Shown here piece after piece: positions 2,314 through 29,319 of a DNA stretch of 64,000 bases. Where the stretch lies: the NCBI GenBank assembly GCA_037893225.1, contig JAZGUH010000122.1:1-64000 (forward strand), given 5' to 3'. Both the position numbers and the translations under genes were made by a program. This DNA comes from Hippasteria phrygiana. Its lineage: Eukaryota; Echinodermata; Asteroidea; Valvatida; Goniasteridae. The notes under the pieces were generated by a model. It was given only the letters and a program-made list of their open reading frames with translations. It made no database searches and was not told the DNA's origin. The first letter of the stretch is position 1; the number at the start of each line of letters is the position of its first letter.

Positions 2314-5300
2314 TCAATTCCGCGGTGGGTGGCTCTGATCTGCTCTGCCTGTCAGATTCTTATCTTCCTTGCCACCTTTCTTCTGGGGCTTCTTTGAGGG
2401 AAATCTGGTCTTCAATGATTCCATGTTGTCAATAACAAGCTCCTTGATGTTTGGCATGATCTTTGGATTACTCATGTTGCTGTGGAACTGATCCACCAAA
2501 CTTGTCGACAATTTTTCACTTTCAAAAATGCCTGAAATGTGGAAATAGTTCACGCCATTAAAGCACTTTATGTTATTAGCAAGGAACTTGACAAACGTTT
2601 TCACTGGAGAACCGTGAAGGAGATAGAGCGTCGTCAAATTCCCCCAGGACTTTCCAGAAGACTTGTTCATTTCGTTCTCCACGTGATCAAACCCAGCCTG
2701 GGTGACCCTGTACAGAGACAACCTGAGATCTATCAGTGTTTCGCAGGCCCACAGTGAGTTCGTTATGGCCGCAAAAGCTCTGTCATCGAATTGCTTATTC
2801 AGACGAAGATCAATCTTTTTCAAGTGTTTAAGTTCTTTCAGGTGTGTAGCAAAGTTGCAAATATCATCTGAACGTAGAATCGTGCCTACTAGAACGAGAC
2901 TTTCAAGCTTCTTCAAATCAGGCAAACAGGAAGCCAATTCTCGTGCTGCACTCGATGAGTGACATTCACCGGACTCTGACTCAAGGAGCTCATGCAGACC
3001 CCAAGACTGCACAGTATGGAGGACACTCCGGTCAGTCTGGTCAGGTGGAAATTTAGGCACAGCGTTATCGCTCGATTCAAGTCTCTCACGCAATTGTATC
3101 AGCGTCGTTGTTTCCCAGTCGCTGCCAATTACATCAAATGTTATAATTTCATTACTACCCTCGGAATCTGATTCTTTAACCATCGATGGCGAGGAAGTTG
3201 ACTGTTTGTCTTCGCTTTTGACAGGTTTCCCCTTACTGGCTGATTCTGACTCCGGTAGATCTGGAGACTGCAAAGCACTTACGATTGCAATATCTGCCTG
3301 TTGTCTTTGATTTGTTTGCTGTTCGGCGTTAATTTGCTCAGAGCTCTCATTCAGCTGTTTCGACGATGATTTTTCGTGATCACCCCTATCTATATCTGAA
3401 AACTGCGAAGCACTTGCCATTTCAACGTCTGCTTGTTGTTTTTCACTCTTTTGCAGCACGCCGTTAATTTTCTCAGTGGTCTTACATAACTGTTTCGATG
3501 ATTCTGTTTCGTGTTCACTTTCATCTACATCTGAAGACTGCGATGCACTTACTATTCCATCGTCTGCCTGTTGTGTTTGACTCTTCTGCTGCTCGCCGTT
3601 AATTTGCTCAGTGCTCTCATTCAACTGTTTCGATGGTGCTGTTTCGTGTTCACCTCTATCGACATCAGTTGGCTGTTTGTCATCGTTTTCAAGTGGTTTC
3701 TCCTCACTTGTAGATTCTAAAGCCTGTGTGGGTTTGGTGGCAGCAATGCCTAACTGTTCTCCATGACTCTTTTGCGAGTCGACGTCCCTTTGCTCATTTC
3801 CTTCAAGTAATCTTTCCCTTTCTTCTGCCTGACATGGCTCCGCGTGTTTTGATTGGATGCACCGATTCTTTTTACTTTCCTCACCCGACGTCTCAACCTC
3901 CGAAGGTGAGTCTGTTGATTGCAGATTGACTTTTTCAGCTTGCCTCGACTTACTTGGAGATTGTGTTTTAGCCACAGTTTTGGCTGGTCGATCCATGCCA
4001 GTTGAAGGCGCTGTTACGTCCAGTTGCAGACCGGGACGAAAATACTCAAGGTATTCTTGGAGGTCACTCCAATCGCATTGTCTCATTCGCAACAATTCGA
4101 CTGACTTCACATTCAGACTGTCGCCTTCTTTCCGGTACGCATATTTAAGCAGATACGACAGAAGACGAACCCTGTGCCTGGAAAGTCCAATTGACTGGAT
4201 CTTCCCTCCGTCAAAGAGCGAACTAAGTTGAGTGTTCTTTGAACCATCGAATCTTCCTTCGAAATTGAGCAGCAGAACTCGCTCGACCAATGTTTGTAAT
4301 TGCAAGATGTCTTTCAGGTTCTTCGTTGGGTGACGTGCTTTGGCCCTGATAACGCCGCTCACCAAATTACCAATAACCATCGAGTAGGCGACAGACCCAC
4401 ATCTGCAGGCGATTGCAAACGCGAAGACATTGCAAATCTTGTCAACGTTCGATTCTATGTTACCCAAGTGAGTTGTTCTTATCCAATTTGAAGTGTTTTC
4501 TTTACAATAAGCCATGTAGACACCAGCACAATACTCTTGAAGTATCTCGAGGGTGAAGCAAACCTTGTAATCGTCAGATGAAGAACGAATTATCTCTGAA
4601 TCATTCCTTGCCTCGTTTTGTTCTCTCTTGGTATCTTTGCAAAAGTAGAGAATCCCAATTTCAACACCTCTTTCGATGACTGTGTGTTTTTCCTCACAGT
4701 CTGCTTTAGAAAGGGTCATTCGACTCCCATAACATTCATAAATCTTAGGTAGGGCAACCCTTCCCAGATCAACTAATACGTCTCGTTGTGCTTCTGGTAG
4801 GAGATCTCCGAGCCTAGGTAATTCACTTGAGTAAGTTGCCTGATCAGCTGCACCGGCCTCATGCCTGTTGAATAGGCATTTAACCAGCTGTGAGACCAAC
4901 TCATACATGGTAGGACTGGACTTTTCAAAAACCTCTCCATTGGTCCAAATGGCTACCTGACAGAAAGCAGCAAGGTTCACAGGTAGGCAAGCAATGTGTG
5001 GCTGTAAAATATCTTCATCCAAATACTCGCAAAGGTTAGAGATTACTTGCTTTTGTTTAGCTGTCAACTCGTGTGCATCTTCACATCTTTCAGCGTCCTT
5101 GCTAGTTGGTGTGTCATTTGTACTAGTAACCTTTGACCCACCAGTGGTCTTCGGTGATTGGTTAATATGATCACGATCAAAAGAAACGCTCAGTACCTTT
5201 TTAACGTACCTTTTGGCATTGTCTCGCTTAAAGCCAGTGATTGTTATATGACGCAGGGAGGTATCGTGCGTCACCTGCGCATGTCCGGTGGTCATGTTTA

Positions 5301-5897
5301 TGATTATTTGACAGTCACTAAGACCTTGGCCTTTCATTATTTTCAACACGCGCTCTATGTCATGTACATGTATGTTATCACATCCATCAATAAGTATGGT
5401 CACTTGGCTTGGGTTGCGCGAGCAATAGTCATTAATGTCGTTCGCCAGTATGTCTGTATTTTTGGGTAGCATGTGCTGGACGACTGCTTCACCCAGATTC
5501 CCTGTTTTAAAAAGGTCACCTACCGGTAAACCAAAGACTAACGTTTGCCCTTCAAACAGTGCGCCGGTTACACCATTGGACCAGTCATTTGCCAGCTTGT
5601 GTAGGAAAGTAGTCTTACCACTGCCTGTTCTACCTTGGATGAGAACATGTTTACTCGATAACTCTGAAATGCCATCGTCAAAGATATCAGATTCTGATTT
5701 CAGCCTATACCTCACAGTACCATCTTCGATGCGTACATTGGTGAACAACTCTGGTTGTGTATAAACGTCGTTTATCGGCGCATAACTTGCCTCCTCATCT
5801 GTGATCCACGGTGTTATGGGAACTCGGTCAGTAGTCTGCCTCACAAACGTTTTGAGTTGTTTAACAAACGCTGCCAAGTCGAATCCTCTGACAGGCT
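2314..5897 (-). CDS. Paralog 1, exon 7: NACHT-linker-LRR (terminal exon)
   Basis: A single 3584-base exon. The acceptor is TTAACAG at 5898-5904, and the phase joins the preceding exon as PR-E-PVRGFDLAAF, aligning with VPGLDCKKF of the paralog. An in-frame Met at 5877 exists, but the phase and homology upstream of it show translation enters from the previous exon. Numbered from that Met: Walker A 82-89, Walker B 161-167, a typical NACHT ITGF-x-x-x-NAK motif near 230, a helical NACHT-associated region, a low-complexity linker (about 640-930), then ribonuclease-inhibitor-like LRRs (LESLVLVG, LKKIDLRLN, LIDLRLS, LTTLYLLHG). It ends in a basic tail. Having no introns across NACHT and LRR contrasts with the split ectodomain. 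Confidence 0.92.
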
Positions 5898-8800
5898 CTG
5901 TTAATTAATTAACACAAATTTAAGTCTGATAAAAAAAATCTGGTGGGTAAGGTATGAGACATTGCTGACAAGCAACGATTGAACATATAATGAAATTAAA
6001 GATCACTATTTGTAATTTATTTCTATAATTTTTGCTTGTTACATTTTCTTAACCTATGTTTAGTTTGTCCCCAAAAAGCCAAGAAAAACCTGCAAAAAAT
6101 TAATAATAAATGATGGTGTTATCCCATTCAGTGACGCTCCGAATCCGTTGACTTGTAGGCCTATTGATAACAATACATTTTTGTTAGATGTGCCCGTCTC
6201 TGATTATATTTTCACCGGGATGTCTTTATTGTGAATAAAACTGACCGAAAGACCAATATGATCATTAAATCGCAAAATTTAGCAGGTGTGATACTGAGGA
6301 TATTTTGCAGATTCCTCTTCAAACATACCTATAACTATACCTTAAAATAACCCTATATAAATATGTAATCCGAGGGCTCAGGCTACAGTTAGATACAGAG
6401 TTGGGGCTACATTCAGTGGTCGGGGGCTACATGAAGTCGGGCGTAAGGGATCGGCGTAGCATAAATAGGTCTTAAAGGAGTGAGTCTTTAAAAATATATA
6501 GCACCAGAGTTGTTCAAAAGCATCATGAGTAGAAGACTAGCTTCGCAAACATTTACATATACAATGCATAATCAAAAAATATATGACCAGTTGGAGTTTT
6601 CAAGATAGTTGTACGATCTTTAGAAACTTCCGAGACAGCGTCATTATAAAACATCTGGATCATTCAGACCTTTCTGGCCTTGACAACCAACATACAAAAT
6701 TTAGTGATGCTCTTGATCGATACTATTTCTCTTTGTACAGGGTTTCCTTTTGAAATGTCAGAACGCTTACCTCGAGGCACCATTTTGTATTGGCCTCGTT
6801 CAGGATCACTCTTCGGGTCTGGTGCTCGTCTCCACCGCCTCCATATTATGATGAAAGCCGTAATCATAAGTAGCACAGCGAGAACACAGACAACAGAGAT
6901 CAAGATGACTGCGATATCCGCAGGCTGTACATCTGAAGGGCCTGCTGAAATCAGAGAAACGTGGAGTTTCAAAAGAACAGCACAAATTCTGAAATGTTCC
7001 AAAATTGTAATCCTTTCTTGAAATCTTTCCCAATTATTTGGCAGCAAAGTTTTGTCTACTCTCTTCTCTCTTAATAGGTGTCTTTAGCTATCACTTCAGA
7101 ATATATAAACCAACACTTCAGATTCAATTGTGTTTTGTCACAGGCTGCTTTCTGCACGAATTCAGATAGATGGTAACTTACTTTCTATAACTAAGATCTC
7201 GACATAAGATCTGATTAAGTCATCGCCGTCTGGAAAGACATGACACCAGTATCTGACGTCACCATCGTGGGAGCAATTGTTCATGCTTAGGGACCCTTCT
7301 GGGGATATATCGAAGCAGCCGCTGTCTCCGAGAGCAAGGGTTTTGGAACCATCTGGTAAATTCAGCATGCCAATGACATTTGTCGCCTCTGCATCGGGCT
7401 CACCAAACGACCAAATCACAGTTGCAGTGACCGTAGTGGCATTGCCTAATAGGACCGGGCAAGTGAGTGTAATTTTGCTATCTGACTCAGAAATCCTGGA
7501 GCGACGGGCAGTAGCAGTACCGCCATCGAGCGGAAATGTACCACCTGTATTTATAAAACGAGAAAATGGGAACAGGTGTTGAAAGAGTGCATAGACTGAG
7601 ATTGCATATGTCTTTTTTAAAGGATCGGGCATTGCTTCATTAATCCAAGCTTCTTCCAGGCATTTTAAAACGAAGTCGATCGCAGCAACATCATCAATCG
7701 GAGCCCTCATCTATTGTGCCAGCAGGATTGCCCATCGATTAGATATTGACTATTGTTTAGTAATTGCTTATCACCTGGAGAAAACGTCATGCCATGTATT
7801 GAAATATACAAAAACAGGTTAAGCCACATACCTATCACTCGAACTGTGATAGCAATGGGTGTGGTCTCGGGACCAAGATCACAGCTGTATTCTCCTGCGT
7901 GATCTGTACCAACTTGTTCAATAAGAAGACCAAAGTTACTCGCAAGACTGTACGTGGTGGCAGCATCAATGACACCAGTCGATAAGTTATAATCGAGGAT
8001 CTTGTGTTCACTGTCGGTGGTTCCCTTGTACCATTGTATCTCACACGATGCATAACCAGATGTCCAGGTACTACAGGGGAGTGTTTGCTGCGTTTGCTTT
8101 TTCAGGTAAAATGATGTGTCTGAAGCCTTCAAAGTACGAGGTGGTTGCTCAGCTACAACACAAAAGAAAAAAATATAAGATCAATAGTTGGCTTTTATCG
8201 TGCTATGCTGTTTAGTCAAGTGGTTTACTTTTGCTTGATACTTGTTCTCGAAATGAGCAGCTTCTATTCAACACATCACCCACAAAATTCAGACACAATC
8301 CTTTACTTTTGATGTTTTTTTTAATCTAAAACAAACACATTCAACTACCTGATATCTGGACATTCGTGAAGCAATTACTCTGCATTCCATCTGGTAGGTA
8401 TACATGACACCAGAATCTCTGGGTATCCTGTACATCGTTCAGGGAGTTGACTGTAAGTGCAGCGTCGCTACCAATGCTGTAATCAGCGCCATGTTGGATC
8501 TGCAGGACAGTACCATCAGAGAAACGCGCACCAATGATGTCTGTATCTGCAGTGACGCCCGCTCCCGTTGACCAATACACAACGGATAATACTGCGTCTG
8601 GTGTCTGTGGCGCGCACTGACATGGTAGCGTCTGTCTGCGTCCTCGCTGGAAAATGGCAGAAGACGATGCGTCACTAGTGGTAGCTGGAAACGAGTCAAC
8701 TGCATATCAAAACAATCAGAAATATAAGAACTATCACTGCGTTATTCTAGAACGTAATTCGAAAAGCGTTGATTCGTACATGATTTATTTTTCTAGCAAA

Positions 8801-9993
8801 AGTACAACAAAAATTACACCCCTACAAAATCCTGGATTCGCCCCTACTTACCGATAACTCTGACGTTGATTTCACCGACTCTGTAAGAGGTATCTCGTGG
8901 TACGACTTGGCACAAGTATCTCCCTTCATCACTCTCCTCAACCCCTTTGATAACGAGGCTGAAACCAGACGACAGCGCGTATCTGTCGCTGTCCGGAAGG
9001 TCTTTGTTTTCAGTATGACTTATCAGACGCTCCTTGTCAGGGTCATTAATGTTTGATCCTTTGTACCAAATTACTCCTAGAAGGACCTCGTCACTCCGGC
9101 GATATGACAGACAGGGCAGTCGGTGCCAAACCCCCCGCTGTACAGTGGCATGCGTGTTAGACAAACTGACGGGGTCCTTGATGAACTTGGCTAATAAGAT
9201 AATCAATAGAGGGGTATTTTGTTATTGTTTATAATCACATGATGCGAAGACAATAGGGGGACAGTGGATATTATTGAGACATGTTTGTGTATTCTTACGA
9301 CTACCCTCTCTATCATTGATTTAAATAATGATTTAAATCAATGGAAAACGATTTTTAAAAATCACTAATAGAAATCACGTTTTAATTAATTTTTTTTCTG
9401 CTATTTTTCAATGTAAAAACAATGTCTGTTATTCAAACCCGACTTTCATTAACTTTAAATCAGTTATACTCACTCTAAAGGGATGTAAACGGCCGGTTTC
9501 ATGAAACATTGTACTACATTTATCTTGTGTACAATGCATATGATTCTGAAGTAATGTACCGGTACTACCTACATGTATTGTACAGTATTCATCTCTTAGT
9601 ACGTATGTACATACATGTGGTTTAACTCAATGCATGTAATGCGCCTATAAATTGATTGCCCCCCAAAAAATTGTGTTCTGGATCCGCCCTTGCACATAAA
9701 CATGATTATATAATTGAAAACAAGATCAAAGATGGAAGCTGATTATTAGACCCAACATTTTTTGATTTGCAATCCATGATGTCTTAACCCTAACAGTCCT
9801 CAATTCTCAGATGATGATTTTTCACACACCCTAGGGTTATTAGGGTAACGGTTCGTACATTGTATGCAATCTGTTCTGACTCTAAGAAAATCAACTTCAA
9901 AATAGAATAAAACATACTGTAGTAACTGTACATGCCTGCATGGTGATATTTATGGTGGCTGTATTAAATAGTTTCATTCCACCATGGTTGTGT

Positions 9994-10035
<42 letters not shown>

Positions 10036-11692
10036 CGGTTCCTGTTATCAACTTGGATGAGAAATGTGCAGGGTGATGCTGTAACAGATTTTCAGACAAA
10101 TGTATTCTAGAAAAGAATATGATATTTAGAAAGGGATTTCAATACTGATTTCATGAACAATTGTGTGTGGTTATACATTTGTACCTGACTTTCAATTATG
10201 GTCATTTAAATTGACTTTATTAAAACAAATGTTTTATGGAAATGGTACAATAGTAAATAAAATTTGAAAAAATCGATTAAAATTTTTAAAATCCGATTTA
10301 AATAAAAAAAATCTGATTTTGTTTAATTAAAAACAAAACAAAATCATGATTTTTATCAACCCTGCTATAAGGGCTTTTTTGGGGTGGGGTGTAGAATTGT
10401 TTGGAATGCTCTCAATCGGTATTTTTCTAGTTCAAAGGCCAAAGGGCTAAGGTAAAAGGCCTAACCTAACACAACAGGGAAGAAGTTTGTGTACATTTCT
10501 AAGGTAATGTCTGCACATTTACCATTCTCGGTTCTTGTTGTTGTCATCATTATTACCCATAATGCCCCTCGGGCTGTATGTCTGAATGAACTCCTACGTT
10601 TCAGTAATGTGCTCCCCTGCACCACAAGTTTTGATCCTATAGACAGTTGGCTTCGCGAAAAAGTAAGGGTTTGCCCCTGGTCACCCAGCACAAAGATGAC
10701 CAATATAAAAATCGCAGATGACATGGCTACCACCTGCAGTTAAGCTGTTTTGTTGATCGGACTAAATGAATTAAATAACTCTGTTTTGTCAAATGATGGC
10801 GCTGTTCGTGGACATCGCAAACAAACCAGTCAATGTGCAGTAATTCTGCAGCCGAGTTGTGTTAATGAATTAGGGGCTCATCAATATTTCACGCTAATTA
10901 TTGAGAACACTTTGTATTTCTAAATCCACAGGGTATTAATTAGTGTCTTCCATCAGACATTCATTAGGTGTACTTTGTTAAACCGAACTACAGTCTCACT
11001 GGGAGGGTTATGTTTAGGCTATTTGCTAAGAGCGTAGAGATCGATGTATATAAACTGGCTTGCAGTGCGGGTTTTGGAGAGACATTATTTTCCTGGCTAA
11101 AATGATCTGAAGACCAGTGTCAGCAGGAATATTCTATTATTCTTAAAAAGTTGTAATCAAGTCAGTACACAAGTCAATCACAAGTCACCACAAGTCACTT
11201 CACAATTCTGGTCGCAAGCTATTTAAATACACTATATAACAAAAGCATTCCTTTGTCATTGTTCATCCCATGTAGCTTGTCAGCTGGCTTGTCAGCTGAC
11301 TTGTGGATTGACTTGTGATCTTCCTTTTGATCTGACTTGTGATTGACTTGATTACAACTCTGCATTCTTCACACAAAATGGGTTATCAGAGCTAAGGGCC
11401 GATAAAACTGCATCAACTGCTCTTTGCCCTGCAGCACTGCAGCACTGACTGAATAAAAATCAACTGCTGGAGATCTCCAAACCAGGCCGCATTGCCTGTG
11501 CCTTTTGTTTCTGCATGGGGGCATATTATACACACTTTTATTACAATAGATGAATAATAATCAGTAACAATGGCTTCATAGAACATGCCAAAGTCAAATT
11601 GGGGTCTTACCGAATGAAGATGGACACGTGTTTAGTTGAGCCGTGCACAGCTTCATCATCAGTGCAACTAAGACGAGTGCGCACTTGTCCAT
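2314..11692 (-). CDS. Ig-TM-NACHT-LRR receptor, paralog 1 (whole gene)
   Basis: Seven coding exons: 11692-11611, 9190-8852, 8699-8349, 8152-7832, 7544-7182, 6944-6771 and 5897-2314. Their sum is 5214 bases, coding for 1737 residues. Every junction is phase 1 with standard GT-AG signals. Order: signal peptide (1-27), four V-type Ig domains (about 28-140, 141-257, 258-364, 365-485), a transmembrane exon (486-543), then an intracellular NACHT domain with Walker A GRTGSGKT (about 632-639) and Walker B ILIDGCD (about 711-717), an acidic Ser/Gln-rich linker with a 45-residue repeat, and C-terminal LRRs. Family knowledge: NACHT-LRR proteins are STAND NTPases that oligomerise on ligand sensing and are usually cytosolic. 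Here the N-terminal effector domain is replaced by an extracellular Ig array. I infer a cell-surface immune receptor. No death-fold domain is seen. The tandem homologue is at 22079-29319. Two separate genes would be the alternative, but the matching phase and the same order in the paralog speak against it. Confidence 0.85.
3262..3666 (-). repeat. Three tandem 135-bp (45-aa) repeats inside paralog 1
   Basis: Three head-to-tail units begin DVDRGEHE, DVDESEHE and DIDRGDHE. Each continues with SSKQL, a QIN/KIN motif, a Gln/Lys-rich stretch and SASQ/SALQ. The starts are spaced exactly 135 bases, so the frame is kept. The units are hydrophilic, acidic and probably disordered. The paralog has only a short linker here, so the repeats account for much of the size difference. 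Confidence 0.88.
5898..6770 (-). other. Intron between TM exon and NACHT exon, paralog 1
   Basis: Donor GTAAGC follows CGAG at 6771, and the acceptor AACAG precedes 5897. The 873 bases are AT-rich, and I see no further exon or clear mobile element in them. Confidence 0.7.
6771..6944 (-). CDS. Paralog 1, exon 6: transmembrane segment
   Basis: 174 bases, phase 1 to 1. It encodes a short stalk (GPSDVQPAD), a hydrophobic helix beginning IAVILISVVCVLAVLL, a basic stop-transfer cluster (WRRWRRA) and a juxtamembrane GQYKMV. The paralog's exon has the same length and stalk motif (DVQP). The topology implied is Ig domains outside, NACHT inside. The acceptor is CTGATTTCAG; a 3-base-shifted CAG acceptor is also possible. 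Confidence 0.85.
7182..7544 (-). CDS. Paralog 1, exon 5: Ig domain 4 (type B)
   Basis: 363 bases, phase 1 to 1. V-set-like pattern: TLTCP, then VIWSFG, then RYWCHVFPDG as the F-strand cysteine. It has further cysteines (GCF, NNCS) that may form a second disulfide. It is closest to Ig domain 2 of the same protein and to the matching exon of the paralog, which has the same length. Confidence 0.85.
7832..8152 (-). CDS. Paralog 1, exon 4: Ig domain 3 (type A)
   Basis: 321 bases, phase 1 to 1. It shows TLPCSTW, IQWYKG and DHAGEYSC, i.e. the B-strand Cys, C-strand Trp and D-x-G-x-Y-x-C of a V-type Ig fold, and ends VRVIG like Ig domain 1. The acceptor is TTGTGTTGTAG and the donor GTATGT. Confidence 0.85.
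8349..8699 (-). CDS. Paralog 1, exon 3: Ig domain 2 (type B)
   Basis: 351 bases, phase 1 to 1. It encodes RRQTLPCQC, VVYWSTG and RFWCHVYLPDG, closing with VQISG. The long C'-C'' region is typical of V-set Ig domains. The exon length equals that of the paralog. Confidence 0.85.
8852..9190 (-). CDS. Paralog 1, exon 2: Ig domain 1 (type A)
   Basis: 339 bases, phase 1 to 1. It encodes HRLPCLSYRR, GVIWYKG, SLVIKG and DEGRYLCQVV, ending VRVIG: a classical V-type Ig domain. By my hand alignment it is about 94% identical in nucleotides to 28577-28915, far closer than any other exon pair between the two genes. Confidence 0.88.
9320..10364. repeat. Truncated copy of the 41.6-kb hAT-like element
   Basis: Shares GATTTAAATCA-rich sequence, the ATTCTGAAGTA segment, the TCCACCATGGTTGTGTG segment and the terminal ATCAACCCTG with the complete element at 41621-42731. 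The left CAGGGTT terminus and the target duplication are missing, so this copy is truncated or diverged at its left end. Confidence 0.7.
9987..10035 (+). repeat. Long poly-G tract
   Basis: Almost 50 consecutive Gs sit inside the repeat copy above. At the matching place the complete copy at 42.4 kb has only a short GA-rich stretch, so the tract expanded after the copies separated. The exact length in an assembly is unreliable. Confidence 0.75.
11611..11692 (-). CDS. Paralog 1, exon 1: signal peptide
   Basis: 82 bases from ATG (CCATGG context) to donor G|GTAAGA, phase 1. It encodes a hydrophobic leader (ALVLVALMMKLCTA) followed by QLNTCPSSFG. The paralog's first exon ends in the equivalent TTCPSSSG, which supports the start choice. 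Upstream transcribed sequence is not defined; no TATA box is obvious. Confidence 0.82.
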
Positions 11693-11859
11693 GGTGTTTT
11701 AGTATGGATCTGGACGAACTTCAATCTGTTGATTATTAACCACACCTGTCTCTTATTACTCATTATTATTCATTCCACGCAATTTTGTACATTTATTGGC
11801 AGTTATTATCAATCACGTATATAATAAGTAAATTGTCAGCAAAAAAATTAAGAAGTAAA

Positions 11860-12023
11860 CAGTAGCGTATCCAGGGAGGGGGAGGGGGGGGACCCCCCCC
11901 CCCCCCCCCCCGTGGCATTTGCGGCGTCATAAAAAACAGAAGGAAATAGTGTTTTTCAGACGGTTTTAAGACAGTTGAGGTGTTGTTTGCCCTCCCTGGC
12001 ATAAAAAGCTGGATACGCTACTG
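11860..12023. mobile_element. hAT-like MITE, TSD GAAGTAAA
   Basis: Terminal inverted repeats CAGTAGCGTATCCAG and its complement at the right end, with an exact 8-bp duplication GAAGTAAA at 11852-11859 and 12024-12031. The interior is G-rich, then C-rich. An 8-bp TSD and CA-G termini are typical of hAT elements. There is no coding capacity. Confidence 0.88.
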
Positions 12024-12913
12024 GAAGTAAACAAAATAATGTAGTAGCAAAAAGGATACAAAATAATCAGGAAATGATATAAACTCCGCAACCCAAGAAA
12101 CGAACGTATTTCGGATAAACATGGCAGCCAATTTAAATTTGCTGATGAAACCAGTTGGTAGAGACAAATAATCCAAAACCTATATCTAGACAGAGCCAAT
12201 CATTGTAAGGGCGCATTTCACGTTTAACAAGACATGAAACAAACTAAAACAATACCATAGGCCTATGCGTGTAATCTGAATGGTCTTCCGTATGAATTAT
12301 TTTTATTGCTAAGTTTTAATACAAAGTTCAGAAACCGGAAAAAAATGGAGGACAGACAACAAGGAATTTATTTATTACATTCTTGTGACGACACCCTCCC
12401 CCATTTAAAACGGTCAAGCAGCACTTCTTATTAAGGGTACTGCAACTTCGTCACGGCATATATAGACGTTGTTTTATTTGGGAGGCCGAGTTTTCACAAG
12501 ATTTTAAAGATTACTGTCTGTGCTCTTAAACAAATTCGATATCTTTTCTGCGTACATTTTTATTTTACGAAAAAAGAAGGAAGGTACTTTCTGCTATTTT
12601 GGGCGACTGCAACCCTCCCAAAAAGTGTTATTCTCGCATTGATTTCGCACATCTAATGCACACAAAGATACGCCCGAATTATTGTCGCGTCGCAATAATT
12701 CGAAATAATTTCGATATTTGTTTTACAACTAAACGTGGGTTGGTTCTTTTTTTGTCACATTCAAAAGTGAATAATTTTTTGTATCGATAAGAAAAGAAAA
12801 AAATTAAAAGCCAACAATTATTTTCGGAGTGAATCCTCGTGGTGAAACAGTTTATGTTTGAGATCCTGAATTGTAGATTTCGAAAATATTTGGTGTATTT
12901 TCAATGTCTTGAC

Positions 12914-13044
12914 CAGTGGCGTAGCCAAGGGGGAACTCTTGCCCCCCTCCCCCCCTCTTGAAAATTGGAATTATCCCCCTTAAAAATAGCCATCCCCCCC
13001 CCCCCCCCCCCCCCCCCCCCAGGAAGAGCCTGGCTACGCCACTG
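12914..13044. mobile_element. hAT-like MITE, TSD GTCTTGAC
   Basis: 131 bp with termini CAGTGGCGTAGCCA and TGGCTACGCCACTG, flanked by an exact 8-bp duplication GTCTTGAC (12906-12913 and 13045-13052). A poly-C tract fills the middle. Its ends are close to those of the 11.86-kb element, so they belong to one family. Confidence 0.9.
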
Positions 13045-19164: not shown

Positions 19165-19487
19165 TAGGGCTGTTCATTTTCGAAAAATTTAGTATTGGAA
19201 TATTCCAAACTGGGTTTGACCGAATATTCGAATATTCGATACTCGCCGATCAAGTTTTTTCTGTGCATGCCGCACCGGTAAAATCAAATTGCATGTAAAA
19301 GCATGCCGGTGTTTTACGTATGGCGATTAATATTATGGACTGTTCAAACGGCATGTTTTTGCATGTAACTTTTCTATTAAAATAGCATCAGAGTCGTATC
19401 TGTACGTGCATATATATCTTTTCGAATATTCAAACTGGCAAAATGGTATTCGAATATCGAATATTCAGTATATTCGGGACAGCCCTA
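19165..19487. mobile_element. hAT-like MITE with AATATTCG ends, TSD ACACACAT
   Basis: 323 bp. It begins TAGGGCTGTTCATTTTCGAA and ends TATTCGGGACAGCCCTA, with an exact 8-bp duplication ACACACAT on both sides (19157-19164 and 19488-19495). GAATATTCGAATATTC repeats lie just inside both ends. A larger relative in opposite orientation is at 40507-41241. Confidence 0.9.
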
Positions 19488-20763
19488 ACACACATACACA
19501 GAAAACCGCACCCAGGGTGATGACCGAACCGCGTCCTATTTAATCGTGCATGCTCGCCAAGTTGTGAATAATTCATTTGTCAAGGTCAAACTCAATCGCT
19601 GATTGGCTCCCCCGGAAAGTCGGGGGAGAATGTCGAAAAAGTAAAGAAAAAGTTAAGACACGCGGACAGGAATATCCAAGAGCAAAGAACAGTAGAATCG
19701 ATTCTTGTCAAAGCGCGTAATATATAAAACATCATCGAATACAATCCGAATCGATTTACTGAGAAACAACGCCCTCGTTCGGAAGTAAAAAAAGGAATAC
19801 GAAGGTCTTGGAACCAAGACTAGTTTTGCTTGGCTGCACAAGCCGGCCTGGCGCCCATATGAAACCCGGTCTCAAGGGGTTAAGTCCCCCTGGGCGACAC
19901 AGATTCGTACTGTGGCGCTTAATGCCTGGCATGCAATACCTATTGCACTGGTTTCCTTCCCTAGGGGGTGGTTCAGTTACGTCTCAACATCTATAGCGTG
20001 CAGCTATGGAGTTACCCCCCGCCCCCCCCCCCCCCCCCCCCCCCCATTCCCCACAACACATGCCCATTATTGTTCTGAGTTACCCCATGTCACTGCAGGC
20101 CTTGCTCGCTCAGGGGGGACCAGCCCCCCCCCCCCCCCCCCCCCAGCTCACATGAGTGGCCCCCTCCCAAACCCTGGAGATCCTTCCCCTCGGCTCCTTC
20201 CGTACCTTGGAAGGATTGGGGGGGGGGGGGGCGTAAATGAAGGGGGTGGGGACACGCTCAGGGGGGTTAGGGGGTTAGCAATTCACACTGACTAATTGTG
20301 TACAAACTTAAGGTTATGATTACTCTATATCTTGATTATAACCCTTGTTCCTAAAGTTTGTAATTGTCACCGTTCACTTCACATTATAGTTTTACAACCT
20401 TACGTGTTGTTCATATCTGTTGTTGTTTAGTGTAGCTTACTAAACCATTGCATTAAGATTCAGTATACTTGTAATTGGTGTAACTTGCCGCGCTTAGTAT
20501 ACCTGTAATTTAACGCTTAATTGCGTGGCTTGGTGGCTTGTAACACTCAATGTCATTAAATTCTTGCATTCCGGTGCCCCAATCACATTTCGAGTAATGA
20601 TGTAGATAATTCAAACACTGGATATATTACATGTAATTGTACATGGGATTGTATAACACTAGCACTTCTAAAGAGCAATAAACGCTCGGCGAAGGTTAGC
20701 CGGAGCAGACCACACATCCCATTTCTGTGCGTTTCCTCTCGTCCTCTCTAGGGCCAATAACAT

Positions 20764-20895
20764 GTTACAAGTATCCAAAGTATATCCGGATTCATTTTTT
20801 AAATAACTGCGATTGGCTTCAGATGAACAGAAACACCGTGACTCCGAGCTAATGGGCTGAAGCCCAAATGCCTGACACGCTTCGAAATAATTATA
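20764..20895 (-). repeat. Inverted copy of the 15.67-kb repeat
   Basis: Blocks AAGTATCCAAAGTATATCC, GATTGGCTTCAGATGAACAG and GGGCTGAAGCCCAAATG are the reverse complements of those at 15.67-15.81 kb, in mirrored order. Confidence 0.75.
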
Positions 20896-21389
20896 TTATA
20901 TTCATGTTTACATTATGTATAATTATATTTATAGTTTTATAAATGTTTCTGTATAGGTCGGTGTACAACTGAATGACCAATTTACATGCAAAACCAAACA
21001 GAAGCACGTGTAGATACAGCCAGGAGCTTCATAGTGCCCGGTAAAAAGCGATGAAATTTACTAAAGAAATTGCCAAAAATGTGCTCATATATCTCTACAA
21101 AAGCAAAAATCAAAACTTCGTATAGTTAAAAATGAATGTGTTAAAGTGTTTCCTTTCAACACGTGGTCATGAAAAGTATTTGGAATTGAATAAATAAACG
21201 AATATGAACATTACACACAAACATAATGTCACATTTCAACAGCGAAAAAATACACAAACAATACAATAACACGGAAAATGAGATCAATATTTCACAAAAA
21301 ACAAAGAAACTATGAAACTTTCGCGCACTTCATTGTTATGAAAAAGGTTCCCTACGAAACACTTCGATCCTACGTGTATGTATATGGAG

Positions 21390-21432
21390 TTTTGTTTGTT
21401 TGTTTGTTTGTTTGTTTGTTTGTTTGTTTGTG
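21390..21432 (+). repeat. (TTTG)n microsatellite
   Basis: About ten perfect TTTG units followed by a G/T-rich stretch. Open frames across it on both strands are repeat translations. Confidence 0.9.
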
Positions 21433-22078
21433 GGGTTTTTTTTGGGGGGGGGCGTACAATATATGTAATGGCGTTTACCTTCCATATATATGCATTAAGA
21501 CATATTGTTCCTGAAAATATAGGTAAATATGGGGCCACTAAATTCTACACATTATTCTTAAACAGCCAACAAAATGCAAAAGCGCCGAATTAAAAACGCC
21601 AAACTCTCCGCTTCAGGAAGCGCTGAATTATTATAAACACAGAGAGCACAAACAAAGTATACCGAGATTTAGAAAATGTATTTATCTTGATCATATTGGC
21701 TGGTAGTTCTTTTTGTCAGACTCTCAATATTAAACTGCGATAATACGCAGCCGGTTTCAACCTTAATGACGTAATTTATACAGTTGTAGGCAAAATATTA
21801 CAAATTTATCACAAAAAAGCAACGAAAAGTCTTAGATAGGAAATAATAACATCGAAGTGAATGTGCTCGATACGGGAATTTGTTCAGTTGTACAAACCAT
21901 GCATCTTCGCTATTGCTGTAAACCAAATTGTACGAACCGCGCAGTTAATAGCAATGGCAAAAAAGACTTAAATCGGGAATAAGGCTGCTGGACATATATT
22001 TCGCACATCGTTTTTCTTGATTATGCCGTAAGTGCTGGTGGCACTTCTATATACGTATACCCGGTACATTTTTTGTCT

Positions 22079-24792
22079 TCATCTTGCGTTACCCCGAGGC
22101 TTCTTTGGCTTTGCCTGTTTCTTTGGGAACGCCAGCTTGGGAAATGTGTATTGCAATGTACCCATGTTGTCAATGACAAGTTTTTCCAGTTTCGTCATAA
22201 TCTGTTTATCCATCATTTTTGCTATGAACTCAGCCTCATCTTTGCTTGGTATTTCGACAACTTGAACAGAGCACGAAATGCGAAAATATCTGACGTCAAG
22301 GTAGATCAAACTTTCTGCCAAGAATCGCACGAACGTTTCAGCGGGACGGCCATGCAGCAGATGCAGTGTCTCAAGTCTTCTCCACGAGTTTGCTGCGTCT
22401 TTCTCCAATTTCTTGAGAACGTGGTCAAACCCGTCTTGGGTCACTTCGTACAGAGACAATCGGAGATCAGTAAGTGCTTGGCAAGCAGGAAGTGACTTTG
22501 CTACTGCCTTGAAAGCAGCGTCATCGAACTGCTTATTCAGACGGATATCAAGCTTCTTTAACCGCGGGATATCTTCAATACGACTCAAGAGGACGCACAG
22601 ATTCTCCGAACTCAGAATCGTACCGATCAGGATTATGCTTTCGAGCGTCTTCAAAGTAGGAAGGCACAACGCTAATTCTTTCGCTGAACTTGACAAGTGA
22701 CATTCGGCAGACTGTGATTCAATGAGAGTCTGAAGATACCCTGAATGCAACTCCAGGAGAACATCGAGGTCCGAAGTGCCAGGCTTGATGTCACCAATGC
22801 ATCTTGATGATAATCTCTCAAGTAACTGATGGGAGGCTTGGACTTCTTCACCCCGTGTTGGGATCAAAGACTGCATTTTCGCACCTTCTGTCTGTGTCTT
22901 GAGTGGAACTAAATACTCTAAATATTCACGAACCTCCCTATAATCTTTTCCGTCAATCCGAAACATCTCAATGGACTTCAGACCCATTCGAGGCTTCTTG
23001 GTGATACTCTGTCCTTCTGTGACAGTTTGTGCCCGTTTGAGAAGATGTAGCGTCAGTCGCAACTTGTGATCGGAAATACCAATCAAACGGATCTTCCCTC
23101 CCTCGAAAAGACGTCCCAGGATTGCGTCTAACGACGTTTGGCACTTGCCCTCTACAATCAATAGAAGACACAGCTCTATCAATTCCTGCAGTTGTACCAA
23201 ACTTTCAATCTGTTTGACCCGTTTGTATAACTCGGAAATTTTACTTACAAGCCGATCAACGAACGCAATGCACTGATCCGGATTTTCCCGGCTGAGAAAT
23301 GCAAATACGTTTGCTAACTTCCCAACATCCATCTTCAAGCCAGTTTCTGAAGTAGGCTTATCATGCCACCACGTCATGTTTTCTGGCAGATGAGAAGCAT
23401 AAATGCCTGCACACAAGTCTTGAAATGCTTCCAGGACAAAGCAGACCCTGCAATCGTCATCAGGTGATTGAACTAACTTTGTTGTTTCCTGCTTGGAATC
23501 CGAATCGGATCTGGACTCGACAAGATATTCCTTGTCATCACGAAGGAGCCCAACCTCTTTGGCCTCGTCGAGTAAATTCAATCCATCTGTGTAACTATTC
23601 ATGAAATCTGCTTTGGAATAGGTTCCTGAACCTTCGCGACAATCACGGAGTCTTGTAAAAGCTTGCGCGCCAAGGTCTTCCAGTATGCTAATTTGTTGCT
23701 TGGTAAGAAATTTTGCAATACCCCGAGCAGACCCAGCGGCTATTGCCTGACTTCTGACGCCACCAGCTTTTCGTCCATTTCGCTTATGGAACATGCGTGA
23801 CATTAGCTTGAAAAACAAGTCACCCATCGTAAGTTCAGGTCTGAAAACTTCCCCGTTTGTCCAAACAGACAACTGACAGAGAACTGCAAGAAAACCTGGA
23901 ACACAGGAGACCTTGGGTCTCAAAATACCACTGTTCAGATAATCTGCGAGTCCTGTGCTGATGTCTACTTCTTGATCTTCTGTGATCAACTCTACCATGT
24001 CATTATTATTGTGTTTAAGTGCAACGTCGTCTTTCTTAGCACTAGTCGATGCTTTTTCGCTATTGGTAAGTTTTACTACGCTTTTAATTACTCTCTTGAC
24101 GTACAGTTGAGCATTTTCTGGCGTAAAGCCAGTTATTGTAACATGGCGAAAGCTATTTTTCTTGCACGCACTTTCTGCTAGCTCTGCATTTCTGGTGGTT
24201 ATTACCACCTGGCTTTCAAGCAAACCTTGATGCTTCAAAATCTCCAGGATGGCCTCGCAGTCACTGGTCCTATTACATCCATCAATAAGAATGGCAACAT
24301 CCATGGGGTGTCCTGTGCAATATTCATTTACGGATGTAGGTAATATTTTGGTACCTCTTGGGAGCATGTATCGCACGACGGCTTCGCCGACATTGCCTGC
24401 TTTAATAAGGCACTCCGCCGGCAAAACAAAAACCAGCTTTTTCTTCCCCAACAGTGCATTAGCGTTCTCTTTGTATCTGTCACATGCGAGCTTGTGCAGG
24501 AATGTAGTCTTACCGCTACCTGATCTACCCTCAACAAGAACATGTTTACTCGAATTTTCTGAAATGCCATCCTCAAAGACTTCAGACTCTGACTCTAATC
24601 TGCATCTTAGATAACTACCACCTGCCAATGGTATACCTACAAACATTTCTAAGGGCGAGTAAACTTGATCGATCGTTGCGTAGCATGCATCATCCCATGA
24701 GATCCAAGGCGTTGTGGGAAGGCTGTTCACTTTCTCAACGAATAACGTGACCTCTTTGGCGAACTTCTTGCAATCCAATCCTGGCACAAGCC
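22079..24792 (-). CDS. Paralog 2, exon 7: NACHT-LRR (terminal exon)
   Basis: 2714 bases. The acceptor TTTGTGCAG precedes 24792, and G|GG completes Gly in SG-LVPGLDCKKF, so the frame continues from the TM exon. An in-frame Met lies upstream inside the intron (24814), but the sequence between it and the acceptor has no counterpart in paralog 1. Motifs: SSKHVLVEGRSGSGKTTFLH (P-loop region), AILIDGCN, VTITGFTPENAQLYVKRV, then a helical region and LRR strands (LESIILIG, LKKLDIRLN, LTDLRLSL, LETLHLLHG). It ends in a Lys/Pro-rich tail. Confidence 0.92.
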
Positions 24793-27700
24793 CTGCACAA
24801 ATTGAGGAAAACAATGCGAGCTGTTTTCAACGTTCTCATGTCATGAGAGAAGCAATGGATTTGAACCTAACAAGTTCGACGCACAAATTGTTGTCATCGC
24901 TTTGATTCCTCCTACGTGATAAACCATGGGCGAAAATCTAATACTGACTGTCCATTTATACACCCATGAACCCCATTTCGACCGTTGTGGTTATGAAGTG
25001 CATACATACCAATTTTACACGTGTCTGTATATGATCCATGATATGTGTTTCATTAAGTGGCATGAGCATCATGACAAACTCCTTCCTAAACCAAAAAACT
25101 TACCACTCGGACTTCTTTCGTCAACATTTATGTAGTGGTGACTTTTTCGACGCCTTTTTGACTCTATTCTTCGGTGCCTCCGTAACATGTAGCAAACACC
25201 AATAAGAATCAGCACAGACAGACAAACAGCCACACTTGTTACGACGACGACGACGAAATTGGTAGGTTGGACATCATCTGCCATTAATAGAGACCATGTC
25301 AATTAGTTGGCATGTAATTTAAACTGTAACTGGTCGTTAAGACCAGGCATTTGTTTATACCAACTGAGGGGTACTCACTCTCGACGACAACATCCACGAA
25401 AGATCGCAATAGAACGCCATCGTGAGGGAAGACATGACACCAGTATCTGACATCAGCTACTTGGTAACAATTGTTCATGAGAAGGGAACCTTTCAAAATT
25501 ATTCCGAAGCAGCTGTTGCCTCCCAGATCAGACATCGTATTGGTACCATCTGGTAGATTTTGCGTTCCGATCAAAGTGGTGATTTGATCATCGGGCGCTC
25601 CATGCGACCAGAATACGATTGCTCCGTTCGTGGCCACAATACTTGAAACAGCTGGGCAAGTAAGTGTCACATTCCTTTCAGGTGCATATTTAACTATTTC
25701 ACCTGCAGTAGCACGACCACCATCTAGTGGAAACGTATTCCCTGTGTTTGAAATGGAAATAGGTTACAAGTTAAATCACTCCTGATGACAAACAAGAGAA
25801 TTATTAATTATAATCGTCGTTCTGAGAACGGACGCTTCACTCATATAACATTTTCAATTTTGTAATTGTAATTAATAATCTTATTTTTTTCATAAGTTTT
25901 ACTTTTCCATTTGCTAGGTTAGGGCGACAAAATTGGTGTCGCCCCAATCAAAAGTCGCCCCAATGGAGTATTTTTTAGTAAGGCAAGTCGGGAAAGTGCT
26001 ATAATAGGGCGACACCGGTGTCGCCCTATTTGAGTAATTATTATCACTGTCGCCCTATTAAAGCAGTAAGAGAAATACTATTTTTTATCTTAAACAATCG
26101 TTATAAAATCATTATTCATCTTTCATTTCACTCCATTTTAGCTACTATTTAAATTTATTACACCTCAACCACAGATTCTGTGTCTTGATTGGCCGAGAGC
26201 GAGTCACATGGCATTTTCTATTTTTGCTATCTTCCTGTGCACGGCCAAAAGTACTATACCCGTAGCAACCAAAGTACTATACCATTAGCAACCAAAGTAC
26301 TATACACATCGCGCGGTATTTGTGTGCAGATGCATGCGGATGATCGCGTTGAGCGTAGCGCGTATTGTTCCAAAGTGCCAGCGCTACAGAGCTGGGTTCA
26401 AACATTTCGTTAAGGGGTGGTTTTAAAAAGAGCAAATAATGTTTCCACTAATTTTGTATTAAAATAGATGTCCATTTTAACTGTATTTAGATTTAAATAA
26501 TGTTAACATTTTTAAATCAAGCAGAATCTGTGGGTGAGGTGTTATAAAACAAATATTTACTGCTTTTATCTCGTGGTGTGGTAAAACTAGCCTCCCTCGG
26601 TGATCCATGGAGCATTCTATTTTCCCGAGGCGAAGCCGAGGGAAAATAGAATGCTCAATAGTTTTACTACACCACTCGAAGCAGTAAATATTTGTATACT
26701 ATTTTATATATTGTAATTTCTTTGGAGGATGAAGAAGTGTCATCACTAATCACAATATTGGTATGGCCAACCCAACTGTTAAACAAACTAAAATAGTAGA
26801 CGCGTTCTGTTTACCGGTCCGGCTTTTTGTGTATTTACATTAAACGTTTTGAAGTCCGTCGTATCGAGAGTGCGCTGCAAACGATGTATGTACCACGAGC
26901 ACCGATACTTTACAGGCTTCGCGTTATATACACCGCGAAGCTCCATTTCGGAGCTTGAAAAACGTACCGGTTACGTTCGATCGGAGAGAAACTTACCGAT
27001 TACAAAGGTGCTAACAACCACATCGGAGATTCCTGCTGTACAAAGGAAGTTCCCGGCATGGTCATCATCAACTGATTTGATAACTAGCCCGAAGTCAGTG
27101 GCGAGATCGAACGAGGGGTCAGCATCGACGTCATCAGACGACAGGTTGTACGTAAGGAGAAGCTCTCGACCTGACGCGCCGATTTTAAACCACTGCATAT
27201 CACAAACTGTGTCATTTGGAGTCCAGGTCGTGCAAGGAACTACCTGCCAAGCCCTTTTTTGAAGGTAGAATGAATCTGCAGAGGCCTTGAGAACATGACC
27301 AGACTGGCTTCTACCTACATTCCAGAAACAGACACAAGCGGTATTGTGTGTGTGTGTGTGTGTGAACTAAAGTGCGGTTATATTTAAAAGCCATGCTTTG
27401 TGACAGCGAGGTAAGACGGTCTACTTACGGTGCACGTTTACGTGTCTCGATCTAATGGTCTGGACATAGAGAAAAAATTTTACCCACATTTTTGCTCAGG
27501 CGAATACATCCTCTATTTAAATACGGGCCAAGAAAAGGAGGTAGGTTGGCGCTGTCTCTGCTGTAAACCCTTTACCCGGCGTGGCTTTTAGCCTAGCAGT
27601 AATTGAAGAATTCCATTGAAAAGCTTGAATGACATCATAAGAAAGTCGGTGTACCACTAAAATTACTATCGTACGAAGCAATGGTTTTGTTTGAAACACA

Positions 27701-29319
27701 CAATGAGACAAGGTCTATTTATAATTTTTAGAGATTTAGTTTGCCGCTGATCTTTCTGAATGCTCAAGTACTTTTGATATGATTTCTTGTATTTTTCGAA
27801 ATATTGATGTACCCTGACGAACTTCTCATACCTGATATCTTGACATCAGTGATACAACTTCTCTGCGTACCATTCGATTGGAATACGTGGCACCACAACT
27901 CACGGCTATCGTCTACCGATTTTAGTGAGTTGACTTGAAGCGAAAAGTTCACATCAATGCTGTTACCAGCGCCACTTTGGAATTGAAGGATAGTGTTATC
28001 GAAAAAACGCGCAGCAATGATGTCTGTTTCTGTAGTGACGCCCTCTCCCGCTGACCAATACACTACATGTATTGGTGCGTCTGGTGTCTGCGACGCGCAC
28101 CGACAAGGTAGCGTTTGTCTGCGTCCTCGCTGGAGACTAACAGAAGATGATCCGTCACTTTTGGTGGCTGGAAACGTGCCAGCTGTATGGAATGAATTAT
28201 TAGAATCCATTAGAACCAGTATCCCCCTAGTTATGGTTCCTAATGTACTGGTCGCAAAACTTGAAAAGTTCTTATTAATGTGAAATGAACCGTAAATTGA
28301 CCTATCGCGGTTTGACCACGCCCTTTAGACAACCCAATGAACTCTGTGTGTTAATTTTGTTAGTGTCGAATTTTGCACGTTCCGCGTTGTATTAGAACAA
28401 AGTGTGATTGGAAGATACTTCACGAGCTGCTTTCACGCGATTCTATTCAAAGTGAAGTCATGGCCATCTTAATGCAAAGGAGACGTGGCTTTCTAATATG
28501 GTGTCGCTGGCTCTAGTTCTTTCCTGAAAAAAAAATAATTTAAAACGAAACGTTCGTGTTTGAATTAAAAACTTGCCAATTACTCTGACGTTGATTTCCC
28601 CGACTCTGTAAGAGGTATCTCGTGGTACGACTTGGCACAAGTATCTCCCTTCATCACTCTCCTCAACCCCTTTGATAACGAGGCTGAAACCAGACGACAG
28701 CGCGTATCTGTCGCTGTCCGGAAGGTCTTTGTTTTCAGTGTGACTTATCAGACGCTCCCTGTCAGGATCATTAATGTTTGATCCTTTGTACCACATTACT
28801 CCTAGAAGGACCTCGTCACTCCGGCGATAAGACAGACAGGGCAGTCGGTGCCAATTCCTCTGCTGTACGGTGGCATGCGTGCCAGACAAACTGACGGGAT
28901 CTTTGATGAGCGTAGCTAATAAGATAATTAATAGAGGTGTAATTTGTTAGTATTTAAACCACATGATGCGATAAGGACAATATCTTATCAGTTATTTTTT
29001 TATTTATTTATTTTTTTAATGAATTTTTAAAACAAAGTACAAGAAATATACAAAACAAAAATACATTTTCAAAGTATTCCCAATCTGTATTTATCGCTCA
29101 CACTCATCAATTGGTCAAGCAAATTTTCACGAATGAGTATTCGTTCCACCAACGCTAAAGTTGTACAAATAGCAAGAAGTTGTACAGAAGGAAGAAAAAC
29201 TGTTGATGAACCCAAACAAATTCAATAACACGTGCCTTACCAGAGCTACTAGGGCACGTGGTGTGAAGGGCTCCACATAACGAAATCATCAGCACAATAA
29301 CCACTATATGCAAATCCAT
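22079..29319 (-). CDS. Ig-TM-NACHT-LRR receptor, paralog 2 (whole gene)
   Basis: Seven coding exons: 29319-29241, 28915-28577, 28182-27832, 27314-26997, 25741-25379, 25277-25104 and 24792-22079. They sum to 4338 bases, 1445 residues, and all junctions are phase 1. The architecture equals paralog 1: signal peptide, Ig A-B-A-B (about 27-483), transmembrane exon (484-541), NACHT with Walker A GRSGSGKT (about 630-637) and Walker B-like ILIDGC (709-714), then LRRs. The long repeat-bearing linker of paralog 1 is absent. The NACHT-LRR exon is roughly half identical to paralog 1 by eye, whereas Ig domain 1 is nearly identical. One intron uses a GC donor. Same strand and head-to-tail placement indicate tandem duplication. 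Inferred role: surface receptor coupled directly to a STAND NTPase. The splice joins need cDNA support, but two independent copies agree on all of them. Confidence 0.85.
25104..25277 (-). CDS. Paralog 2, exon 6: transmembrane segment
   Basis: 174 bases, as in paralog 1. It encodes the stalk NDVQPTN, a Val-rich helix (FVVVVVTSVAVCLSVLILIG), a strongly basic cytoplasmic side (RRHRR, KRRRK) and HHYINVDE. The acceptor AATGGCAG lacks a long pyrimidine tract, so this boundary is less certain than the others. Confidence 0.8.
25379..25741 (-). CDS. Paralog 2, exon 5: Ig domain 4 (type B)
   Basis: 363 bases, phase 1 to 1. Encodes TLTCPAV, IVFWSHGAPDD and RYWCHVFPHDG, with extra cysteines (SCFG, NNCY) at the positions seen in paralog 1. 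Confidence 0.85.
25918..26060. repeat. GTCGCCC-rich repeat with 28-bp perfect palindrome
   Basis: The heptamer GTCGCCC or its complement occurs at least five times. Bases 26003-26030 form a perfect palindrome centred on ACACCGGTGT. Confidence 0.8.
26550..26697. mobile_element. Fold-back element around GCATTCTATTTTCCC
   Basis: Outer arms AAATATTTACTGCTT and AAGCAGTAAATATTT plus inner arms GCATTCTATTTTCCC and GGGAAAATAGAATGC form a near-complete hairpin about a GAGGCGAAGCCGAG core. There is no coding capacity. It is consistent with a palindromic MITE; I could not define a clear target duplication. Confidence 0.8.
26997..27314 (-). CDS. Paralog 2, exon 4: Ig domain 3 (type A)
   Basis: 318 bases, one codon shorter than in paralog 1. 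Encodes VVPCTTW, MQWFKIG and DHAGNFLC, ending FVIG. The acceptor is TGGAATGTAG and the donor GTAAGT. Confidence 0.83.
27340..27365 (+). repeat. (GT)n microsatellite
   Basis: An alternating GT run directly upstream (in transcription sense) of the Ig3 exon, within the intron. Confidence 0.8.
27832..28182 (-). CDS. Paralog 2, exon 3: Ig domain 2 (type B)
   Basis: 351 bases, equal to paralog 1. Encodes RRQTLPCRC, VVYWSAGEG and ELWCHVFQSNG, ending VKISG. The acceptor is CCATACAG and the donor GTATGA. Confidence 0.86.
28577..28915 (-). CDS. Paralog 2, exon 2: Ig domain 1 (type A)
   Basis: 339 bases. Encodes HRLPCLSYRR, GVMWYKG and DEGRYLCQVV, ending VRVIG. The donor reads ATTG|GCAAGT: a GC donor with otherwise perfect consensus, where paralog 1 has ATCG|GTAAGT. 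Roughly 140 bases in the middle are identical to paralog 1. Confidence 0.87.
29241..29319 (-). CDS. Paralog 2, exon 1: signal peptide
   Basis: 79 bases, phase 1. Leader MDLHIVVIVLMISLCGALHT, then TCPSSSG before donor G|GTAAGG. An upstream in-frame ATG at 29349 would add ten polar residues; the inner ATG places the hydrophobic core as in normal signal peptides. Confidence 0.8.

What the first reader, a model, noticed from the sequence alone, without database searches (positions are those of the whole stretch)
2314..29319. Tandem cell-surface NLRs: signal peptide, four V-Ig domains, TM helix, cytoplasmic NACHT-LRR
Seen: seven phase-1 exons per gene, twice, with the same order and nearly the same lengths, and coding sums divisible by three. 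Known: NLRs (NACHT-LRR STAND NTPases) are cytosolic with N-terminal death-fold effector domains. Inference: here the sensor is an extracellular antibody-like array wired through the membrane to a NACHT engine, i.e. a receptor class I do not know as an established family.
Basis: partly seen in the sequence, partly recalled or inferred. Interest (0 to 1): 0.96.

Follow-up and report, generated by a model that had tools for sequence, protein, structure and literature searches.

The report
Cell-surface NLRs with antibody-like heads
Two neighbouring predicted genes, probably from an echinoderm, each encode a protein predicted to span the cell membrane, with four antibody-like domains likely outside and an inflammasome-type NLR sensor likely inside; a sea-cucumber receptor of the same layout is already published, and what looks new is that in sea-star relatives the outermost antibody-like domain has a different family tree from the rest of the protein.

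Summary
Two minus-strand genes (11692-2314 and 29319-22079) each have seven exons; all six junctions are phase 1 and the frames are open; four exons have identical lengths in both copies and one differs by three bases. They encode a signal peptide, four V-type Ig domains, one TM helix, then NACHT and a C-terminal LRR that Pfam misses but a structure model shows. Fourteen annotated sea-star proteins have the same order, so the TM-NACHT junction is not a misjoin peculiar to this window. The claim of a new receptor class is too strong: AjNLRC4 of the sea cucumber Apostichopus (PMC8699970) has Ig-TM-NACHT at nearly the same residue positions and is reported on the coelomocyte surface, binding microbes and internalised; V-set NLRs are also reported in Chiridota (PMC8913654). 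I could not compare AjNLRC4's sequence. New as far as my searches go: an LRR in the model; an outermost V domain whose tree conflicts with the rest (AU p 2e-5) and whose exon is nearly identical in the two window genes; a degenerate Walker B pair. Most likely a germline-encoded surface receptor that binds microbes, clusters and is taken up. Splicing, surface display, binding and ATP use are untested here.

The parts
11611..11692 (-). gene 1 exon 1, predicted signal peptide (MDKCALVLVALMMKLCTAQLNTCPSSF)
   Evidence: scan of 9191-22000: 3 candidates from 2 start codons, the only one with the CP motif seen in gene 2 and relatives; frame checked; no tblastn match
8852..9190 (-). gene 1 exon 2, V1 (outermost V-set domain)
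   Evidence: Pfam V-set 1.5e-11; 92.9% aa identity to gene 2 V1
8349..8699 (-). gene 1 exon 3, V2
   Evidence: Pfam V-set 0.0041, below cut-off; 15 of 22 proteins match
7832..8152 (-). gene 1 exon 4, V3
   Evidence: Pfam V-set 2.1e-7
7182..7544 (-). gene 1 exon 5, V4
   Evidence: Pfam V-set 0.042, below cut-off; 50.8% identical to gene 2 V4, which is modelled as a V-type Ig
6771..6944 (-). gene 1 exon 6, predicted transmembrane helix and juxtamembrane tail with YKMV
   Evidence: hydropathy peak 3.19 over 19 residues; phase-1 frame
2314..5897 (-). gene 1 exon 7, NACHT, helical domains, low-complexity spacer, LRR-like C-terminus, stop
   Evidence: Pfam NACHT 3.5e-14; first Met only after Walker A
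29241..29319 (-). gene 2 exon 1, predicted signal peptide (MDLHIVVIVLMISLCGALHTTCPSSS)
28577..28915 (-). gene 2 exon 2, V1; donor is GC
   Evidence: Pfam V-set 2.1e-10
27832..28182 (-). gene 2 exon 3, V2
   Evidence: Pfam V-set 1.1e-5, 26.0 bits, at the cut-off
26997..27314 (-). gene 2 exon 4, V3
   Evidence: Pfam V-set 0.059, below cut-off; 15 of 22 proteins match
25379..25741 (-). gene 2 exon 5, V4
   Evidence: no Pfam match; AlphaFold2 mean pLDDT 82.4; Foldseek top hits TCR, CD226, CAR D1, antibody VL
25104..25277 (-). gene 2 exon 6, predicted transmembrane helix and juxtamembrane tail with YINV
   Evidence: hydropathy peak 3.09
22079..24792 (-). gene 2 exon 7, NACHT, helical domains, LRR, stop
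   Evidence: Pfam NACHT 9.7e-12; structure model and fold search
8846..9255 (-). block around gene 1 V1 (exon plus about 65 bases of upstream intron) nearly identical to 28571-28982
   Evidence: alignment; blastn 93.0% over 402 bases; V1 dS 0.14 against 1.3-2.5 (near saturation) for V3, V4, TM, NACHT core and C-terminus, and 0.38 for V2
28571..28982 (-). block around gene 2 V1, partner of 8846-9255

Best explanation
Each gene encodes a receptor predicted to lie in the cell membrane, with four V-type Ig domains likely outside and a NACHT-LRR module likely inside, that probably binds microbes through its Ig head, clusters and would be drawn into the cell to drive phagocytosis. Shown here: exon anatomy, open frames, V-set and NACHT homology, the same domain order in 14 annotated sea-star proteins, an LRR fold in a model, and a separate genealogy for V1 in the sea stars. 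Inferred: surface topology (signal peptide, one dominant TM helix, basic residues just after it); uptake through a tyrosine sorting motif YxxPhi present in both window genes; microbe binding, clustering, internalisation and actin contact, taken over from AjNLRC4. Inferred too: V1, the membrane-distal domain, is the main ligand-contacting part and is renewed by exchange or conversion between paralogues, while NACHT-LRR serves as an ATP-binding oligomerisation platform with weak or no hydrolysis.
Confidence: 0.6

Rival explanations
1. Two products per locus: an Ig-TM receptor ending after the TM exon and a separate cytosolic NACHT-LRR, joined only on paper.
For: No transcripts available; the sea-star proteins are gene predictions too. 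In gene 2 the NACHT exon has a Met at residue 49, before Walker A at 88, so an internal start would keep the P-loop. P0021 in Patiria has V domains and TM but no NACHT match.
Against: 14 annotated proteins in two sea stars run through the same junction. TM exons end at GT donors in phase 1 and NACHT exons start at acceptors with no upstream Met in the open frame; gene 1's first Met lies after Walker A.
Confidence: 0.1
2. Reverse topology as claimed for AjNLR-new: NACHT outside the cell and Ig inside.
For: PMC13133943 reports this for an Apostichopus Ig-TM-NACHT protein.
Against: Here there is an N-terminal hydrophobic signal-like exon and one dominant TM helix followed at once by basic residues (RRWRR, RRHRR); invariant cysteines in V2, V3 and V4 suit an oxidising outside (inference); AjNLRC4 itself is reported Ig-out.
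Confidence: 0.05
3. The NACHT part is a degenerate scaffold, not an ATP-driven switch: the receptor is a phagocytic adaptor that contacts actin.
For: 0 of 15 members keep acidic residues at both +3 and +4 after the first Walker B Asp (DGCNR, DGCDN, DDCND and similar; canonical DGxDE recalled). AjNLRC4 intracellular part binds beta-actin with Kd 5.87 uM.
Against: Walker A is intact in 15 of 15 (for 14, P0009 by eye) and the first Walker B Asp is invariant in the 17 sequences of A4, so nucleotide binding is likely kept.
Confidence: 0.3
4. An allorecognition or self-marking receptor, not a microbe receptor; a variable V1 tip would report individual identity.
For: V1 lineages cross the species boundary between Patiria and Acanthaster; a review cites allorecognition in Patiria pectinifera (passages).
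Against: The only tested receptor of the same layout binds microbes. No polymorphism data.
Confidence: 0.1

Closest known systems
AjNLRC4 of Apostichopus japonicus (PMC8699970; PMC11932488)
   Same: N-terminal Ig head, TM helix, then NACHT, at nearly the same residue positions; reported as a coelomocyte surface receptor that is internalised
   Different: Reported with two Ig domains, two TM segments and no LRR; here four V domains, one dominant TM helix and an LRR by model. The gaps between its named Ig domains would fit V2 and V4 (inference). Sequences not compared.
V-set NLRs of Chiridota heheva (PMC8913654)
   Same: NACHT proteins with an Ig V-set domain in an echinoderm; stated not to be identified in sea-urchin NLRs
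   Different: The passages read give only a count (6 NLRs with other domains, V-set among them); TM and exon structure not stated there
Uncharacterised LOC proteins of Patiria miniata and Acanthaster planci (P0001-P0013, P0020)
   Same: Same order of domains, 36-46% identity to gene 2 over 47-84% of it
   Different: Own V1 types; no function assigned; models P0009 and P0012 lack a normal N-terminus and P0013 has a shortened V1
Vertebrate NLRs (NLRC4, NOD2, NLRP3)
   Same: NACHT by sequence; helical domains and ribonuclease-inhibitor-type LRR in the model
   Different: Cytosolic, with death-fold or other N-terminus and canonical Walker B pair (recalled); no Ig head or TM helix
AjNLR-new (PIK48001.1, PMC13133943)
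   Same: Ig, TM and NACHT in one echinoderm protein
   Different: Reported with Ig domains between two TM segments and NACHT outside

Membership tests
NLR (NACHT-LRR STAND NTPase) | NACHT domain | tested here: met
   Pfam PF05729 above cut-off in both genes; in 15 of 15 members of A2 at E 1e-3
NLR (NACHT-LRR STAND NTPase) | C-terminal LRR | tested here: met
NLR (NACHT-LRR STAND NTPase) | Catalytic Walker B acidic pair DGxDE (recalled) | tested here: not met
   0 of 15 members have acidic residues at both +3 and +4
NLR (NACHT-LRR STAND NTPase) | Cytosolic protein with N-terminal signalling domain | tested here: not met
   Predicted only: hydrophobic signal-like exon, V domains and TM helix precede NACHT
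AjNLRC4-type surface NLR | Ig domains, TM helix and NACHT in this order | tested here: met
   against coordinates
AjNLRC4-type surface NLR | Sequence kinship with AjNLRC4 (MN607598) | not testable with these tools
   AjNLRC4 not among hits; its sequence was not obtained
AjNLRC4-type surface NLR | Surface location, microbe binding, internalisation | not testable with these tools
   needs cells
IgSF V-set | V-type Ig fold in each of the four V exons | tested here: inconclusive
   Met by Pfam cut-off for V1 and V3 of gene 1 and V1 and V2 of gene 2, and by fold for V4 of gene 2; the other three exons by homology and weak Pfam scores only

The most novel reading that the evidence does not exclude
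A germline V-tip exchange system on cell-surface NLRs: paralogues in one cluster keep a shared V2-V4-TM-NACHT-LRR body and trade their outermost V exon by conversion, so an antibody-like variable tip is plugged straight into an inflammasome-type engine at the membrane of echinoderm immune cells.
Probability: 0.3. Interest if true: 0.85.

Novelty: new member of a known kind. Interest (0 to 1): 0.6.

Why it matters
NLRs are taught as cytosolic sensors. A conserved, multi-copy family that puts an NLR behind an antibody-like head in the membrane would show that outside sensing can be wired directly to a NACHT platform. If the outermost V exon is really exchanged between paralogues, echinoderms would have a germline route to recognition diversity in a surface receptor, and the conflicting V1 tree makes this testable by population sequencing.

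Tried and rejected
Rejected: gene 1 first exon at 10724-10523, or with donor at 10684; replaced after the scan. Searches used files or alignments with the superseded exon; the V, TM and NACHT parts are the same. More copies of the family in the window: none by tblastn at 1e-3 with 22 retrieved proteins and the two window proteins. AjNLRC4 not found in three protein searches (each scored only the roughly 8000 candidates sharing most words). No PDB chain at 0.01 by phmmer of the gene 2 NACHT exon alone. Literature: ten searches used; none of the rows listed was a sea-star Ig-NACHT paper or a V1-exchange report, but some lists were cut (15 of 39, 10 of 22), most subscription journals are missing, and the 2020 AjNLRC4 cloning paper was seen only as a reference. 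The amphioxus domain-combination paper (PMC2575513, passages; 12 of 21 places shown) names TIR, DED and death domains with NACHT; it has no occurrence of 'immunoglobulin' or 'Ig domain'.

Dropped rows: P0009 and P0012 (models without a normal V1) from the Patiria counts; P0009, P0012 and P0013 from the trees; pairs with under 60% overlap from identity means. P0021 left out of A4 because it lacks the P-loop region. YxxPhi matches printed that lie in the NACHT exon (gene 1 YAPI, P0002, P0003, second of P0007) or in the TM helix (P0012 YFLI) were not counted.
Full report
What is there. Two genes lie in tandem on the minus strand. Gene 1 runs from 11692 to 2314 (1737 aa), gene 2 from 29319 to 22079 (1445 aa). 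Both have seven exons with all six junctions in phase 1 and a single stop at the end. Exons 2, 3, 5 and 6 have identical lengths in both genes (339, 351, 363, 174) and exon 4 differs by one codon (321, 318). Amino-acid identity between the copies is 92.9% in V1, 59% in V2, 40% in V3, 51% in V4, 30% in the TM exon and 43% in the last exon, so the shared lengths are not explained by a very recent duplication of the whole gene. The first exon of gene 1 needed a correction: the exon I first used (10724-10523) lacks the CP segment that gene 2 and the sea-star proteins share, while 11692-11611 has it.

Is the junction real? In both genes the NACHT exon has no start codon in its open upstream stretch, and gene 1's first Met comes after Walker A; in gene 2 a Met precedes Walker A, so an internal start there is not excluded. 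Ten Patiria miniata and four Acanthaster planci annotated proteins run V domains, TM and NACHT in one chain (P0020 by eye); 15 of 15 proteins scanned in A2, two of them the window's own, have both V-set and NACHT. The 11 Patiria hits carry one contig length and the 4 Acanthaster hits another, which suggests one chromosome or scaffold per species. These are gene predictions; I did not see transcripts. The source species of the window was not identified; its nearest retrieved relatives are sea stars, at about 40%.

What is already known. Chen et al. 2021 (PMC8699970) report AjNLRC4, with Ig at 31-132 and 251-353, TM at 483-503 and 776-795 and NACHT at 600-757, on the coelomocyte membrane; the Ig part binds microbes, the receptor dimerises and is internalised, and the intracellular part binds beta-actin. 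Gene 2 has V1 at 27-139, V3 at 257-362, a TM peak at 491-509 and NACHT at 626-777, so the published gaps fall where V2 and V4 lie here. This is a match of layout from print, not a sequence test. PMC11932488 (abstract and passages) adds that internalised AjNLRC4 contacts caspase-1 through its Ig domains; PMC8913654 (passages) lists V-set NLRs in Chiridota and states that none was identified in sea urchin; PMC13133943 (abstract and passages) reports a relative with reversed topology.

What is new here, as far as these searches go. First, V1 does not share the history of the rest in the sea stars. Among eight Patiria paralogues V1 averages 56.1% identity (36.8-91.7) against 82.3, 85.9 and 81.2% for V2, V3 and V4 and 77.9% for NACHT; V1 is below V2-V4 in 27 of 28 pairs. 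The TM exon (58.0%), the middle (65.6%) and the C-terminus (66.4%) are variable too. In four Acanthaster paralogues the picture is weaker: V1 43.7%, V2 74.0%, V3 53.2%, V4 53.4%, TM exon 22.9%, NACHT 42.3%. By tree, V1 of Patiria P0004 pairs with Acanthaster P0020 (99/97), whereas V2-V4 and the NACHT part hold the eight Patiria proteins together (98/98 and 99/99). Holding Patiria together on V1 is rejected (p-AU 2.3e-5), and holding P0004 with P0020 is rejected on V2-V4 (5.5e-10) and NACHT (2.6e-57). Both groupings were tested after the tree was seen; Patiria is a natural group, the pair was picked from the tree, so its p-values are descriptive. Second, in the window the V1 exons and about 65 bases of upstream intron are 93% identical, with V1 dS 0.14 against 1.3-2.5 in V3, V4, TM, NACHT core and C-terminus; V2 is between, at 0.38. 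Exchange or conversion of the V1 exon explains both patterns; homogenisation of the bodies within Patiria around old V1 lineages is an equal reading of the tree. Third, the Walker B second acidic pair is not kept in any of 15 members, while Walker A is kept in all 15 (P0009 by eye). Fourth, the juxtamembrane tail has YxxPhi in 10 of 15 members, both window genes included; P0020 and P0021 also show one by eye. No background rate was computed for this short motif.

How it most likely works. The Ig head, displayed outside, would touch a microbe with V1 as the outermost part; receptors would cluster; the tyrosine motif and contact of the inner part with actin would carry the complex inward; the NACHT-LRR would bind ATP and act as a platform with little hydrolysis. 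Display, binding, clustering, uptake and nucleotide use are inferred, mainly from AjNLRC4.

Verdict.

Noticed in passing
61256-61636 and 62684-63019, minus strand: WD40-repeat open frames. The second one matches PkwA best (2.3e-18) and then APAF-1 (4.1e-11) among PDB chains, so an APAF-1-like gene may extend beyond the window's right end.
   Followed up: partly
33516-34796, plus strand: Two open frames with Ig-like matches (I-set 1.8e-5 in the first, only weak ones in the second), by eye rich in N-glycosylation-like sites; not matched by the V-NACHT family proteins.
   Followed up: partly
P0021 (Patiria miniata): Relative with V domains, TM and LRR-like tail but no NACHT match; by eye its fourth V domain resembles its own second one.
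   Followed up: partly
28571-28576, minus strand: Gene 2 V1 exon ends at a GC donor (GCAAGT) where gene 1 has GTAAGT, within the nearly identical block.
   Followed up: no
gene 1 last exon, about residues 1175-1475 of the 1737-aa protein: Low-complexity spacer with similar repeats between the helical domain and the LRR, mostly absent in gene 2 and of varied length among relatives.
   Followed up: no
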